A DNA stretch of 64,000 nucleotides. Source: a virus. Both the position numbers and the translations under genes were made by a program. The notes beneath the pieces are model-generated. The model saw only the letters and a program-made list of their open reading frames with translations. It ran no database searches and was not told the origin of the DNA. Positions 13,471-34,798 of this stretch are shown here, one piece after another; position 1 is the stretch's first letter, and each line of letters opens with the position of its first letter. The stretch lies in the IMG/VR virus record IMGVR_UViG_3300035664_000006, positions 1 through 64,000 of that record. The stretch is one strand, 5' to 3'.

Positions 13471-14277
13471 ATGGCAACATTTTGTTCTTGCATCATATGC
13501 AAAAAAGAACTATCTATCAAGGGATTTCATTCCCATTTTATTCGTTTACATACTATTGATGGTAATATAGCTACCAAACAGTATGCAGCATTATCGGTTA
13601 ACAAAGTTAAACAAAACACGATTATAAAAAATAATACAGCCAGGATTAACTATGCAAATGATCCAACACATTGTAAAGAATGTGATTGTTGTTTGCCATA
13701 TAACAAACGATTTAATAATTTCTGCAACAGTTCGTGCTCTGCAAAATATAATAATCTAAAAAAAGATTATAATAAATTTAAACCAGGTCCTAAAAAAGTT
13801 ATCACCGTTAAATCGAAACAACGTAAGGTAAAAGAAAAAAAAGTTATCGAAAATCAATTTACTAAAATATATCTTTGTAAATGTAAAATTTCCAATAAAG
13901 TTTGGTTCTCTCCAACTATTAAAACTATTCATCCATCTATAACTGATACCAGAAAACAATATGCATATCAATGCAGATTTACATTTAGTATTTCTAAATA
14001 TCCTCAGTGGTTTAACTATTCATCAAAGTTAATATTAACGTATGGGTGGTATAGTGCAGCAAATAAAGGGAATAATTTGTCTGGGTGTTCTAGAGATCAT
14101 TTATTATCAGTATATGACGGTTTTATCAATAATATTGATCCAATACTTATAAGTCATCCCGCTAATTGTGAAATAGTACCACATAAATTAAACCAATCTA
14201 AACATAAAAAATCTAAAATCTCACTCGATGAATTATTACTGAGGATAGAATTATTTGATAAGATGCATGAGAGCTGA
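13471..14277 (+). CDS. HNH homing endonuclease with N-terminal zinc finger
   Basis: 268 residues. N-terminal CSCIICKK...FHSHFIRLH is a C2H2-like finger, and a second Cys cluster CKECDCC...FCNSSCSAKY follows. The C-terminal SRDHLLSVYDGF...ISHPANCEIVPHKLNQ is an HNH core. Plus-strand insertion between RNA elements and a tRNA-Cys gene. A hairpin CCTAG/CTAGG stands in its leader, unlike the leader of the other plus-strand endonucleases. A GAGG Shine-Dalgarno precedes ATG. Confidence 0.82.
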   Translation: MATFCSCIICKKELSIKGFHSHFIRLHTIDGNIATKQYAALSVNKVKQNTIIKNNTARINYANDPTHCKECDCCLPYNKRFNNFCNSSCSAKYNNLKKDYNKFKPGPKKVITVKSKQRKVKEKKVIENQFTKIYLCKCKISNKVWFSPTIKTIHPSITDTRKQYAYQCRFTFSISKYPQWFNYSSKLILTYGWYSAANKGNNLSGCSRDHLLSVYDGFINNIDPILISHPANCEIVPHKLNQSKHKKSKISLDELLLRIELFDKMHES

Positions 14278-14343
14278 ACAGGAGAATCGAACTCCTCTAA
14301 CATGATTTTGCAGACCATTCCATTACCACTCTGGCAGTTCAGC
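14272..14343 (-). tRNA. tRNA-Cys(GCA) with extended acceptor stem
   Basis: Acceptor GCTGAAC/GTTCAGC, anticodon loop CTGCAAA, T-arm AGGAG-TTCGATT-CTCCT. No CCA is encoded. The flanks continue pairing, so the acceptor helix extends to about 19 bp (14261-14279 with 14337-14355). A weak D-arm (CCA/TGG). Extended helix suggests RNase III-like or unusual end processing. Confidence 0.82.
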
Positions 14344-14367
14344 TCTCATGCATCTCTTGTTTTATAC

Positions 14368-15021: not shown

Positions 15022-15047
15022 AAATTCCTTTATTATTGAATTAAAAC

Positions 15048-15157
15048 AGGATACGTGTTTTTAGCCTGGCGCTCTCCCAACTGAGCTACATTTCTATTGA
15101 AATGGTAGGACTTGAACCTACGACATCTAGGGTATATAAACTTGCTGAATGTATCCT
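15048..15157 (-). ncRNA. tRNA-mimic Y-RNA-like element 5
   Basis: Closing stem AGGATAC/GTATCCT, then ATTCAGCA. The interior reads in permuted order: anticodon-stem 3' strand, T-arm GTAGG-TTCAAGT-CCTAC, acceptor-like stub CATTTC-AATA-GAAATG, D-arm TAGCTCAGTTGGGAGAGC, anticodon-stem 5' strand CCAGG. So the tRNA-like body is opened in the anticodon loop and its acceptor is closed by a short loop. It lacks free CCA ends, so it cannot be charged as such. Confidence 0.72.
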
Positions 15158-15168
15158 AAAAAATTAGC

Positions 15169-17114: not shown

Positions 17115-17146
17115 GAAAACTGATAAAAATTGATTTAAAAAGTATC

Positions 17147-17222
17147 TGCTCCATCTCCTGGAATCGAACCAGGCTCGAACGGTTTAACAGACCGACCGCA
17201 CACCTTGTGCGTTAAATGGAGC
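17147..17222 (-). tRNA. tRNA-Asn(GTT) with extended acceptor stem
   Basis: Anticodon loop CTGTTAA, acceptor GCTCCAT/ATGGAGC, T-arm CCTGG-TTCGATT-CCAGG, no encoded CCA. Flanks AAGTATCT/AGATACTT extend the acceptor helix by 8 bp (17140-17154 with 17216-17230), as in the Cys and His genes. Confidence 0.85.
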
Positions 17223-17249
17223 AGATACTTCTTGGATTTATTCGTTTTG

Positions 17250-17930: not shown

Positions 17931-17943
17931 GATTAATTTTAAC

Positions 17944-18064
17944 AGGATCCTTTTTTACGTTGCTTTACCAGACTAAGCTAATCCCAGGTAGTTTTTCGGG
18001 GATGTTGGATTCGAACCAACGATCTGCGGCTCCCAATGCAATTATTGAATGCTGAACGGATCCT
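17944..18064 (-). ncRNA. tRNA-mimic Y-RNA-like element 12 (proline-like)
   Basis: Closing stem AGGATCC/GGATCCT, GTTCAGCA, then TTGGGAGCCGCAGATCG, T-arm GTTGG-TTCGAAT-CCAAC, stub ATCCC...GGGAT and D-arm TAGCTTAGTCTGGTAAAGCA. The TTGGGAG stretch and stub resemble the anticodon and acceptor region of tRNA-Pro(TGG), so this copy probably derives from a proline tRNA. Confidence 0.74.
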
Positions 18065-18109
18065 AAAACTTTTAAAATTGTTAAAGAGCTTATTAACTAA
18101 TATGTGTAC

Positions 18110-21415: not shown

Positions 21416-21533
21416 AGGTTAGCATTTTAAGTTTTCCCAATTAAACTACATTAAGTGACCAACCTTAACGCTGGGATTCGAACCCAGAACTTTCTTTTAC
21501 AATAAGATTTAATAAAATTGCTGAAACTAACCT
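21416..21533 (-). ncRNA. tRNA-mimic Y-RNA-like element 15
   Basis: Closing stem AGGTTAG/CTAACCT, TTTCAGCA, T-arm CTGGG-TTCGAAT-CCCAG, stub GTTAAG/CTTAAT, D-arm GTTT-AATTGGGA-AAAC. 118 nt, permuted order. Confidence 0.72.
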
Positions 21534-21571
21534 ATTGGTCGTATTCGCTGGTGACTACCCTCGAATATTCT

Positions 21572-23494: not shown

Positions 23495-23568
23495 GGTGAC
23501 CGATGGGACTTGAACCCATAAAAACCTGAATCACAATCAGGGTCGTCTACCAATTCCGACACGGCCAC
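23495..23568 (-). tRNA. tRNA-His(GTG) with extended acceptor stem
   Basis: Anticodon loop TTGTGAT, acceptor GTGGCCG/CGGTCAC, T-arm ATGGG-TTCAAGT-CCCAT. No CCA and no encoded G at -1. Flanks ACTAATTAGG/CCTAATTAGT add a further 10-bp helix, as in the Cys and Asn genes. Confidence 0.84.
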
Positions 23569-23591
23569 ACCTAATTAGTCTAATCTTATAT

Positions 23592-23698
23592 TAAACTACA
23601 CTACGGAAGGATTCGAACCTTCGGTTGCCGTCGCATTCAACACACCAGTGTACCGTTACGAATCGAACGTATCTTACCACCATTTATAGTGTAGTTTA
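23592..23698 (-). ncRNA. Long-stem RNA with two T-arm-like hairpins
   Basis: 107 nt closed by a perfect 12-bp stem TAAACTACACTA/TAGTGTAGTTTA. It contains two T-arm-like hairpins, TACG-TTCGATT-CGTA and GAAGG-TTCGAAT-CCTTC, and a D-arm-like ACAC-TGG-TGTGT between. No CAGCA motif. Not a normal cloverleaf. Confidence 0.55.
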
Positions 23699-23714
23699 TT
23701 ATAAAATCATATAG

Positions 23715-23825
23715 TAAAGTGCATTAAACAAGGGAAAACGAATGTTATACATCCTCCTGTCTCCTGCCCTCAAGCTCAACACCCTCCTGGCCAGTGATGT
23801 CAAGGTGACTGATTAATGCACTTTA
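23715..23825 (-). ncRNA. Long-stem RNA rich in Shine-Dalgarno-like motifs
   Basis: 111 nt closed by a perfect 13-bp stem TAAAGTGCATTAA/TTAATGCACTTTA. The loop contains CAGGAGGGTG, GAGGGCAGGAGACAGGAGG and no tRNA-like arms. The AGGAGG clusters could pair with the 16S rRNA 3' end, but this is speculation. Confidence 0.5.
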
Positions 23826-23834
23826 ATATAAAAT

Positions 23835-23941
23835 CATATAATAAAGCATACTACACGGAATTGAACCGTCTTCATTCAAGCCCGGAGCTCAAACTGTGAT
23901 CCACACAACGCTGATCAGACGCTAATATGCTTTATTATATG
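23835..23941 (-). ncRNA. Long-stem tRNA-like RNA
   Basis: 107 nt closed by a perfect 16-bp stem CATATAATAAAGCATA and its complement. Inside are a T-arm GACGG-TTCAATT-CCGTG directly before the 3' strand, hairpin TGTG-GAT-CACA and AGC-TCCGG-GCT. Resembles a tRNA with a greatly lengthened acceptor and abnormal D/anticodon arms. Confidence 0.52.
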
Positions 23942-23945
23942 ATTG

Positions 23946-24578
23946 TTAATTCCATTTCATGAAATTTATTAATTCCTGTATTTTTTCTTTTTTAGATTCA
24001 TCTGATAATTTTTTAAATTCGGCCCATCTTATTCTAATGCCAGTCCATCCCAGGTCAGATAAAATTTGAGTTCTAATATTATCGTGTGCAACGATACGTG
24101 TGTCAACGTAATGCTGTTCCCCGTCTATTTCCAAGTATAGTTTTTCTTGTATATTTGCAAAATCAACTATATATCTGTTAATATTATGCTGAAATTTTTT
24201 ATTTACAATATGGACAAAACATTCTAAAAAGTATTGTTCAGGATATGAAATTTTGGACGAATGATTTAAAACATATGGTATTTTATCTGGGTTTAATTCT
24301 AAATATTTTTTTCGATGTTCAGAAATCTTCTGTTTTGTTTCTTCGCTATGTTTTCTACCTGTACTAATTATTGACATCTTTTTTCGATGTTCATCGGAGA
24401 TAATATATTCAATTCCAGTTTCTTTTGCTTTTATATATTGATTTTTACCTTTCTTTCCCAACATACCATATGATGGTTTAACTATAATACCATTTGGATT
24501 ACTTTTACATCTTATTTCATGTTGTGTTAATGAATTTTTATTTTTACATTCTCTACCGCAATATTTGCACTTTAACAT
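23946..24578 (-). CDS. Homing endonuclease: zinc finger, NUMOD3, Vsr/EDxHD-like nuclease
   Basis: 210 residues starting at MLKCKYCGRECK (GGAG upstream). N-terminal C2H2-type finger (CKYCGREC...HEIRC), middle NUMOD3 (SDEHRKKMSIISTGRKHSEE), C-terminal nuclease with EIDGEQHY, AHDNIRTQIL and GWTGIRIRWAEF. The last block fits Vsr-like EDxHD nucleases, which are known from homing endonucleases associated with split-intein genes. Inserted in the RNA cluster next to tRNA-Lys. Confidence 0.8.
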   Translation of the reverse strand: MLKCKYCGRECKNKNSLTQHEIRCKSNPNGIIVKPSYGMLGKKGKNQYIKAKETGIEYIISDEHRKKMSIISTGRKHSEETKQKISEHRKKYLELNPDKIPYVLNHSSKISYPEQYFLECFVHIVNKKFQHNINRYIVDFANIQEKLYLEIDGEQHYVDTRIVAHDNIRTQILSDLGWTGIRIRWAEFKKLSDESKKEKIQELINFMKWN

Positions 24579-25612: not shown

Positions 25613-25688
25613 TGGTGCTACCGACTGGGATCGAACCAGTATAGCTGAATTTTCAGTCCAGTGCATGAACCATCACTGCCACAGTAGC
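25613..25688 (-). tRNA. tRNA-Phe(GAA)
   Basis: Anticodon loop CTGAAAA, acceptor GCTACTG/CGGTAGC, T-arm ACTGG-TTCGATC-CCAGT, encoded CCA. Confidence 0.93.
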
Positions 25689-26464: not shown

Positions 26465-26574
26465 TTATATAGAAACACACTCGTTTCTGAGCTTTCGGTA
26501 TGTATGCCTACACTTTAGGATAGCCCCTGCGTCCAGTTGCTCATTATCCCTACCGTGAATGTGTTTTTATATAA
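26465..26574 (-). ncRNA. Long-stem RNA
   Basis: 110 nt closed by a 15-bp stem with one wobble (TTATATA-x-AAACACA arms). Contains AGGGATA/TATCCT. Sits between tRNA-Pro and tRNA-Glu. Same size class as the RNAs at 23.6-23.9 kb. Confidence 0.5.
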
Positions 26575-26761: not shown

Positions 26762-27003
26762 ACACTCTCCCACTATGTGTTTAGACGGTTCGTATCCGAA
26801 TTGAGAGTGTATATTAAAACACACTCACTTTAACTTGTCAAGAACCGTAATTCTTAATGCTGATCTAGTATGTTTTAATATTAAATCTAACAGCACCATA
26901 CACAGGCGGTCCATATATCTTTACGATACCGCTCTTTGGGATAAGCAAAGGCTCGCTGCCCCAATTAAGTATGCTCTTATCTAATAGCCAAGCTATTAGA
27001 TTT
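26762..27003 (-). ncRNA. Three consecutive stem-closed RNA segments
   Basis: 26762-26810 (ACACTCTC/GAGAGTGT), 26812-26880 (TATTAAAACA/TGTTTTAATA, with inner AAGAA/TTCTT) and 26883-27003 (AAATCTAA/TTAGATTT, beginning with a 10-bp hairpin ATCTAATAGC/GCTATTAGAT). No ORF or tRNA arms. They fill the gap between tRNA-Tyr and the next gene; individual function unknown. Confidence 0.42.
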
Positions 27004-29084: not shown

Positions 29085-29493
29085 CGAGCATACTTTGCCC
29101 CACAAAGGGGGCAAAAAATAAAAATTTCAACTGAGTTGACTTCACACTGATATTACACTATTACAGAGGCGGTCAGCCGGTACCTCGAAGTGCTGTCTTT
29201 ATCTGACGGCGGGTTCATTCATACATATCAGCGCACAAATGTCCGTAGGGTTCTTATCCCTTCTTTAGCCTATTTTTCCATTGCTCAAACATTCGAAATC
29301 GGTTTTACAAAGGCGTATCCGATCATCATCTACAACACGAGGTGTAGGTAGTCAAATGAGTCATTGCTTCAGCACAATTGTTTCCATCTACGCGAAGGAC
29401 ATTCCGTATCTCTGGGCACTATTTTTCCTTACCAGTGCAGGTTTTATCTGAAGTGTATTGCCTAAGTTGTGCCTGAGTTTGAGCCTTAATATT
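29085..29493 (-). ncRNA. Candidate ~400-nt noncoding RNA
   Basis: Between the promoter at 29499-29527 and a GC-rich hairpin (GCCCC/GGGGC near 29098-29115) there is no ORF longer than about a dozen codons, yet base composition is markedly less AT-rich than local spacers. Short complementary runs are frequent. It does not show RNase P, tmRNA or 6S signatures. Large ornate phage RNAs near tRNA clusters (GOLLD/ROOL type) are a possible comparison, not an identification. Confidence 0.6.
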
Positions 29494-32594: not shown

Positions 32595-32669
32595 TGGTGC
32601 GCTTGATGGGATTCGAACCCATTATCGTAAGTTTTAGAGGCTTTTGCTATACCGAGCAGCTTCAAGCGC
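32595..32669 (-). tRNA. tRNA with CTA anticodon (possible amber suppressor)
   Basis: Acceptor GCGCTTG/CAAGCGC, T-arm ATGGG-TTCGAAT-CCCAT, A73 and encoded CCA are regular. The only anticodon loop with T33 is CTCTAAA, giving CTA, which reads UAG. The anticodon stem is weak (C31:A39 and A27:A43 mismatched). TAG is used as a stop by several genes in this window, so suppression would cause readthrough. Stands apart from the main tRNA cluster. Confidence 0.65.
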
Positions 32670-33580: not shown

Positions 33581-33676
33581 TTAAGCAGCGATAGCATCAA
33601 AGATGCCATCTACAGTGTAGAATTCAAATTTTGTATTTGCTTTTGCATTTACTTTAAATGCTTGATTTACGGTCAT
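33581..33676 (-). CDS. Short ORF of unknown function
   Basis: 31 residues, MTVNQAFKVNAKANTKFEFY, with GGAG 15 nt upstream. It follows the long-stem RNA at 33735-33816 and the promoter at 33896-33923. Low complexity and small size make it uncertain. Confidence 0.4.
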   Translation of the reverse strand: MTVNQAFKVNAKANTKFEFYTVDGIFDAIAA

Positions 33677-33734
33677 CGCCTACCGATTCTCCAATGTTCT
33701 TTTATCCAGCAATCGAATCTAAGTCAGGCCCATT

Positions 33735-33816
33735 ATAAAACATATTAGCACTTCCCTTTTAAGGGGCAGGAAGTTTATGGCTATGGCCCCACTCTGATAC
33801 CTCTAATATGTTTTAT
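33735..33816 (-). ncRNA. Long-stem RNA
   Basis: 82 nt closed by a perfect 14-bp stem ATAAAACATATTAG/CTAATATGTTTTAT; inner GGGGCC...GCCCC and ACTTCC/GGAAGT. It lies outside the tRNA cluster, behind its own promoter. The gene-free stretch 33527-33999 holds this RNA, the short ORF and control elements. Confidence 0.5.
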
Positions 33817-33895
33817 GGTGGACCTGGCGATGTTCTGCCCATCGCGTCTTACCAAACTATTACAACATCTTCAACGAATTCTTTAATTAATGTGT

Positions 33896-34691: not shown

Positions 34692-34798
34692 TATTTAATT
34701 TTGTCTATACCGCACACCCTTGCGACTTCAGCCTGTTAAGGTAGAGCTACTAAATAGAACTCTATGACTTCTATACTTTCACATAGATAAATTAAATA
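34692..34798 (-). ncRNA. Long-stem RNA
   Basis: 107 nt closed by TATTTAATTT...AAATTAAATA with continuing pairs; inner hairpin TAGAG/CTCTA. Behind a consensus promoter (34877-34904). Again the ~107-nt size class. Confidence 0.48.

What the first reader, a model, noticed from the sequence alone, without database searches (positions are those of the whole stretch)
23592..23941. Second RNA family: ~107-111-nt segments closed by long perfect stems
Seen: three consecutive segments (23592-23698, 23715-23825, 23835-23941) are closed by perfect 12, 13 and 16-bp stems of unrelated sequence. Further members of similar size lie at 26465-26574 and 34692-34798, and an 82-nt one at 33735-33816. Uniform length and perfect but different stems suggest selection on structure. 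They lack CAGCA. Their interiors differ (two T-arms, purine-rich, tRNA-like).
Basis: seen in the sequence. Interest (0 to 1): 0.72.

Follow-up and report, generated by a model that had tools for sequence, protein, structure and literature searches.

The report
Helix-capped RNAs in phage tRNA arrays
Between its many tRNA genes this uncultured virus of bacteria carries small RNA genes whose two ends zip together into one shared kind of helix; related genes sit in dozens of other viruses' tRNA arrays, and evolution has preserved their folds (one with a pseudoknot) although nobody knows what they do.

Summary
Four of the six segments (S1 23592-23698, S2 23715-23825, S3 23832-23944, S4 26465-26574, all minus strand) look like real RNA genes inside a phage tRNA array. 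S4 has homologs at about 40 loci (31 distinct sequences aligned): 22 of 35 proposed pairs show changes on both sides that keep the pair, four of them in a pseudoknot helix. S3 (9 sequences) has 19 of 28 such pairs, S2 (5 sequences) 7 of 43; S1 has two relatives. In 540 gaps between tRNAs of related phages there are 37 closing helices of at least 18 pairs, against 0 in shuffles. A U.G version of the helix occurs only on the tRNA-sense strand (13 v 0). The 82-nt segment is the spacer of a permuted tmRNA; the segment at 34692 is unsupported. No Rfam family or deposited phage matched; three models failed on the T4 species 1/2 region. Most likely: stable small RNAs, co-transcribed with tRNAs, freed by tRNA end-processing and protected by the helix. 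tRNA or translation mimicry is an inference only.

The parts
26465..26574 (-). S4 RNA: closing helix, CGGU/ACCG helix, GGAUA/UAUCC helix, near-invariant loop AACUGGACGCAGGGGC, hairpin with GGCA loop, pseudoknot
   Evidence: 31-sequence alignment, 22/35 pairs with both-side changes; alternative pseudoknot and hairpin stems; tRNA-Pro ends 2 nt before, tRNA-Glu starts 8 nt after
26539..26543 (-). S4 pseudoknot, 5' strand (UGAGC)
   Evidence: pairs with GCUCA at 26488-26492; covaries in relatives
26488..26492 (-). S4 pseudoknot, 3' strand (GCUCA)
26523..26538 (-). S4 near-invariant loop AACUGGACGCAGGGGC
   Evidence: almost every column invariant over 31 sequences (part of it was the search pattern)
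23832..23944 (-). S3 RNA: tRNA-like, 19-bp perfect closing helix, hairpin with 5-nt UGGAU loop, T-arm GGUUCAAUUCC
   Evidence: 9-sequence alignment, 19/28 pairs with both-side changes
23715..23825 (-). S2 RNA: purine-rich core, extended closing helix
   Evidence: 5-sequence alignment, 7/43 pairs with both-side changes; homologs L060, L073, L285, L301
23592..23698 (-). S1 RNA: hairpin with 7-nt UUCGAUU loop plus T-arm GGUUCGAAUCC; present or absent as a unit
   Evidence: homologs in L285 and L301 with one compensated closing pair; cleanly missing from L073
26811..26881 (-). further member, 71 nt, not in the finding
   Evidence: helix AUAUUAAAACAUACU//AGUGUGUUUUAAUAU, z -4.3; homolog in L073, weak match in L051
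33735..33816 (-). 82-nt segment: spacer between the two pieces of a permuted tmRNA gene; related closing helix
   Evidence: RF04321 match 33581-33880, 92.5 bits; the segment lies between CCACCA and the 5' piece
   Evidence: 10-bp stem, z -0.9, no motif, only near-identical homolog

Best explanation
S1-S4 are noncoding RNA genes built into the phage's tRNA array. Each is a compact folded core enclosed by a closing helix of common pattern (5' arm roughly AUAUUAAARYRYAYU, 3' arm AGURYRYUUUAAUAU). Inferred mechanism: they are transcribed together with the tRNAs; cuts at the 3' end of the upstream tRNA and the 5' end of the downstream tRNA (RNase Z/E and RNase P), possibly helped by cleavage of the helix, release them; the helix then holds both ends together and protects the RNA from exonucleases. 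Cores are exchanged as cassettes, probably by recombination at the similar closing arms. The cores probably act on tRNA handling or translation during infection, for example as mimics or decoys. Shown by computation: genes on the tRNA strand, conserved folds including a pseudoknot, shared helix, presence or absence as a unit. Inferred: release, stability, function.
For: Covariation of S4 (91.5% of cells paired, 22 pairs changed on both sides, 0/500 shuffles reach this, slid controls 28-42% paired; seven alternative pseudoknot helices). S3 and S2 covariation. In 33 S4-bearing loci with tRNAs every detected tRNA is on the S4 strand, and in 17 the profile match starts within 1 nt of an upstream tRNA end. 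Helices of >=14 pairs between tRNAs: 52 against 1.4 expected; >=18 pairs: 37 against 0, and 15 on the other strand. U.G-bearing helix motif 13 v 0 by strand. Shared arm consensus. Clean absence of S1 in L073 with the breakpoint in the closing arms. Precedent: T4 makes two small RNAs from its tRNA region, detected by Northern blot, function unknown (PMC9697503, PMC3014915).
Against: No transcript data. S1-S3 have no tRNA abutting on both sides in the window (23, 146 and 263 nt to the downstream tRNA), so tRNA processing alone would not trim all of them. 23 of 52 helix-closed segments in relatives are more than 60 nt from an upstream tRNA. Some ordinary tRNAs here also have long leader-trailer pairing, so a helix alone is not specific. 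Nothing ties any core to a target.
Confidence: 0.6

Rival explanations
1. The helices are only processing punctuation: spacers that mark cut sites (RNase III or others) between tRNAs, and the interior does not matter.
For: Many lie directly between tRNAs; the helix consensus is shared by unrelated interiors.
Against: S4's interior is nearly invariant over 31 sequences and its inner helices covary; S3's inner hairpin and T-arm covary.
Confidence: 0.15
2. S1 and S3 are decaying or divergent serine tRNA genes (CGA and GGA loops, long variable region) with extended acceptor stems.
For: T-arm directly 5' of the closing 3' arm; GGA kept in all nine S3 sequences; ARAGORN calls overlap three S3 homologs, in L063, L109 and L134; two real tRNAs in the window carry 13 extra leader-trailer pairs.
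Against: No RF00005 match even at E<=5; in S3 the 7-nt anticodon loop is reduced to 5 nt by a covarying pair; no CCA after the acceptor; does not apply to S2 or S4.
Confidence: 0.15
3. Small DNA elements with terminal inverted repeats (MITE-like), mobile at the DNA level.
For: S1 is gained or lost as a unit; inverted-repeat ends.
Against: U.G pairs on the tRNA strand only, more long helices on that strand (37 v 15), conserved inner folds and position. Target-site duplications were not examined.
Confidence: 0.05

Closest known systems
T4 species 1 and 2 RNAs (rnaC, rnaD)
   Same: Small RNAs of about 120-140 nt in a phage tRNA cluster; function unknown; rnaC has a T-arm-like hairpin near its 3' end (sequence).
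   Different: Models of S4, S3 and a third helix-closed family find nothing in the T4 tRNA region.
GOLLD and ROOL RNAs
   Same: Structured RNAs of unknown function encoded in phages and prophages, often near tRNA islands (PMC12286853).
   Different: Much larger, with other folds; neither reached the gathering score in the window.
Permuted tmRNA (RF04321)
   Same: The 82-nt segment is its spacer and has a related closing helix.
   Different: S1-S4 lack tmRNA parts and do not match the model.
Canonical tRNA (RF00005)
   Same: S1 and S3 have a T-arm next to the closing helix and an anticodon-like hairpin.
   Different: No covariance-model match, 5-nt loop in S3, no CCA, 12-19 bp closing helix.

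Membership tests
Canonical tRNA (RF00005) | covariance-model match | tested here: not met
   no tRNA match to 23560-23960 at E<=5
Canonical tRNA (RF00005) | 7-nt anticodon loop | tested here: not met
   S3: covarying closing pair leaves 5 nt; S1 does have a 7-nt loop
Canonical tRNA (RF00005) | T-arm with a tRNA-type loop | tested here: met
   S1 and S3
T4 species 1/2 RNAs | location in a phage tRNA array on the tRNA strand | tested here: met
T4 species 1/2 RNAs | sequence-structure homology | tested here: not met
   R1, R2, R3 give no hit in L160
T4 species 1/2 RNAs | discrete stable RNA in infected cells | not testable with these tools
   needs RNA data
Permuted tmRNA (RF04321) | 82-nt segment lies between acceptor CCA and the 5' piece | tested here: met
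GOLLD / ROOL / any Rfam family | Rfam match | tested here: not met
   no gathering-level match to S1-S4; only chance-level matches at E<=5
Helix-closed array RNAs (this work) | AA.YRYAYT closing helix near tRNAs on the tRNA strand | tested here: met
   S1-S4 and 26811-26881; 34692-34798 fails

The most novel reading that the evidence does not exclude
Tailed phages with large tRNA arrays keep a modular library of RNA cassettes: interchangeable folded cores in one standard closing helix, swapped by recombination at the helix arms, acting as trans-acting decoys or modulators of host translation or of RNA-targeting defence.
Probability: 0.25. Interest if true: 0.88.

Novelty: new variant of a known kind. 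Interest (0 to 1): 0.72.

Why it matters
Small RNAs in phage tRNA clusters have been known from T4 for decades without a function. Here are families with covariation-supported folds, one a pseudoknot absent from Rfam, in dozens of metagenomic phages and in none of 50,697 deposited phage records at the sensitivity used. The shared closing helix gives a search handle, and the recurrent cores (S4 above all) are short enough to synthesise, probe and test.

Tried and rejected
Relatives through a neighbouring large protein gave few arrays. blastn with seven queries (four S4 variants, one S3, two other families) against deposited phages: no match. Rfam at E<=5: chance matches only. HDV-like ribozyme considered for S4 because its topology partly resembles it; rejected for want of any model match and because of an extra helix. 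Homology to T4 rnaC/rnaD tested with three covariance models: none. RNA ligase, RtcB and RNase III genes in eight records: none found, though most records are fragments. S4's loop has no other near match on either strand of the window. Most hits of the S2 pattern scan, and part of the S4 pattern scan, were chance and were filtered by profile.

Full report
Setting. The window is part of a 95.9-kb virus record with 26 tRNA genes, all on the minus strand, a permuted tmRNA and homing endonuclease genes. The six segments of the finding lie in or near this tRNA array. All statements below read the minus strand, the strand of the tRNAs.

Observation. Perfect stems were found at 23592-23698 (12 bp), 23715-23825 (13 bp), 23832-23944 (19 bp, longer than reported) and 33735-33816 (14 bp); the stem at 34692-34798 has 10 bp. 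Markov-shuffled windows give 11.4 stems of 10 bp or more, 0.8 of 12 and 0.2 of 13, so the 10-bp stem alone is ordinary. Folding z-scores are -2.9, -2.3, -5.2 and -4.3 for S1 to S4, and -0.9 for 34692. The 82-nt segment is the spacer between the acceptor end (CCACCA) and the 5' piece of the permuted tmRNA, so it is explained.

The stems are not unrelated. Anchored on the inner end, the 5' arms of S1 (AACTACACT), S2 (AAGTGCATT), S3 (AAGCATATT), S4 (AAACACATT), the segment 26811-26881 and the tmRNA spacer all fit AA.YRYAYT; only 2 of 623 chance 10-bp arms do, and 34692-34798 does not. The motif was defined after seeing these arms, so the 0.3% is a guide and not a test; but much the same pattern recurs in 23 of 52 helix-closed segments of other phages.

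Relatives. A scan with the CAGCA motif of the neighbouring family brought in about 90 tRNA-array contigs. In 540 gaps between same-strand tRNAs (118 kb) there are 52 closing helices of at least 14 pairs against 1.4 in shuffles, and 37 of at least 18 against none; the opposite strand gives 15 of at least 18. A helix version with a U.G pair near its inner end occurs 13 times on the tRNA strand and never on the other, which points to RNA and not DNA as the selected form, although related phages are not independent counts. One 4.9-kb contig binned with a planctomycete MAG holds 15 tRNAs and, by eye, about eight such segments (L305); it is probably phage.

S4. A 15-nt piece of the core, and then a profile, found homologs at about 40 loci. 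On the alignment of 31 distinct sequences a structure with closing helix, CGGU/ACCG, GGAUA/UAUCC, a short hairpin and a pseudoknot pairs 91.5% of cells; 22 of 35 pairs show changes on both sides; none of 500 shuffles reaches these figures, and slid versions pair 28-42%. The alignment was not fitted to the structure, but the structure was read from these sequences. The short hairpin looks poor in that count (47%) because of the alignment: read sequence by sequence it is present in all but two of 34, with a GGCA loop nearly always and at least eight different stems; the pseudoknot appears as CCUAGC/GCUAGG, CCUGGC/GUCAGG, CUGAGC/GCUCAG, CAGAGA/UCUCUG and others. The loop AACUGGACGCAGGGGC is almost invariant; part of it was the search pattern, so its conservation is partly by selection. 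In all 33 S4 loci with tRNAs, every tRNA found is on the S4 strand; the match starts within 1 nt of an upstream tRNA in 17 of them, and in many loci the tRNA's CCA is itself part of the helix.

S3, S2, S1. S3 has homologs in six contigs outside its close relatives; 19 of 28 pairs show both-side changes. It looks like a tRNA with a long variable region, T-arm and a GGA loop, yet a covarying pair reduces the loop to 5 nt, no tRNA model matches and the acceptor runs on into the closing helix. S2 has five distinct sequences and seven such pairs. S1 has two further sequences, with one compensated closing pair and, in those two, a 6-bp hairpin stem under a UUCGAUU loop. In L073 S1 is missing and the junction lies in the TTTAATATAA of the closing arms; this fits loss or gain by recombination between arms of neighbouring cassettes. 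Elsewhere the near-identical record G002 lacks exactly the tRNA-Phe gene, so clean unit changes occur in this array.

Mechanism. Shown: RNA genes of the tRNA strand, conserved folds, common helix, unit gain or loss. Inferred: co-transcription, release by tRNA end-processing, protection by the closing helix. This is weakest for S1-S3, which have no tRNA on both sides in the window. The function is open. tRNA or translation mimicry is suggested for S1 and S3 by the T-arm and for all by location, and by nothing more.

Comparison. T4's species 1 and 2 RNAs come from the tRNA region, are seen on Northern blots and have no known function (PMC9697503, PMC3014915). They are the nearest precedent in kind, but not homologous by three covariance models. 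GOLLD and ROOL are much larger (PMC12286853). No Rfam family matches, and no deposited phage record matched in blastn with words of 11 bases. The papers library holds open-licence papers only, so an earlier description in a subscription journal cannot be excluded.

Noticed in passing
window 15043-15160, 17940-18067, 21420-21535 (minus); L034 9206-9320: CAGCA elements: hairpins AGGATNC..CAGCA .. GNATCCTG whose interior, in several, is a tRNA-like gene in circularly permuted order (T-arm half first, then D-arm half); ARAGORN in circular mode wraps two of them. Short versions hold no tRNA. Widespread in tRNA-array phages.
   Followed up: partly
window 33581-33880 (minus): Phage-encoded permuted tmRNA (RF04321, 92.5 bits).
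   Followed up: partly
L131, L134, L144, L093, L080, L083, L089, L118, L122 and others (A8): Another helix-closed family (GUAAGC .. GCAAAUAGUGC), 12 sequences aligned; not in the window.
   Followed up: partly
window 29287-29443 (minus); L036 4341-4497: Polynucleobacter-1 RNA (RF01718) in this phage and in a relative.
   Followed up: no
window 14261-14355 and 17140-17230: Ordinary tRNA-Cys and tRNA-Asn genes with about 13 extra leader-trailer pairs beyond the acceptor stem; dozens of similar cases in related contigs.
   Followed up: partly
window 32595-32669 (minus): tRNA with CUA anticodon (called tRNA-Pyl), a possible amber suppressor.
   Followed up: no
window 25613-25688 against G002: Near-identical record lacks exactly the tRNA-Phe gene.
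   Followed up: no
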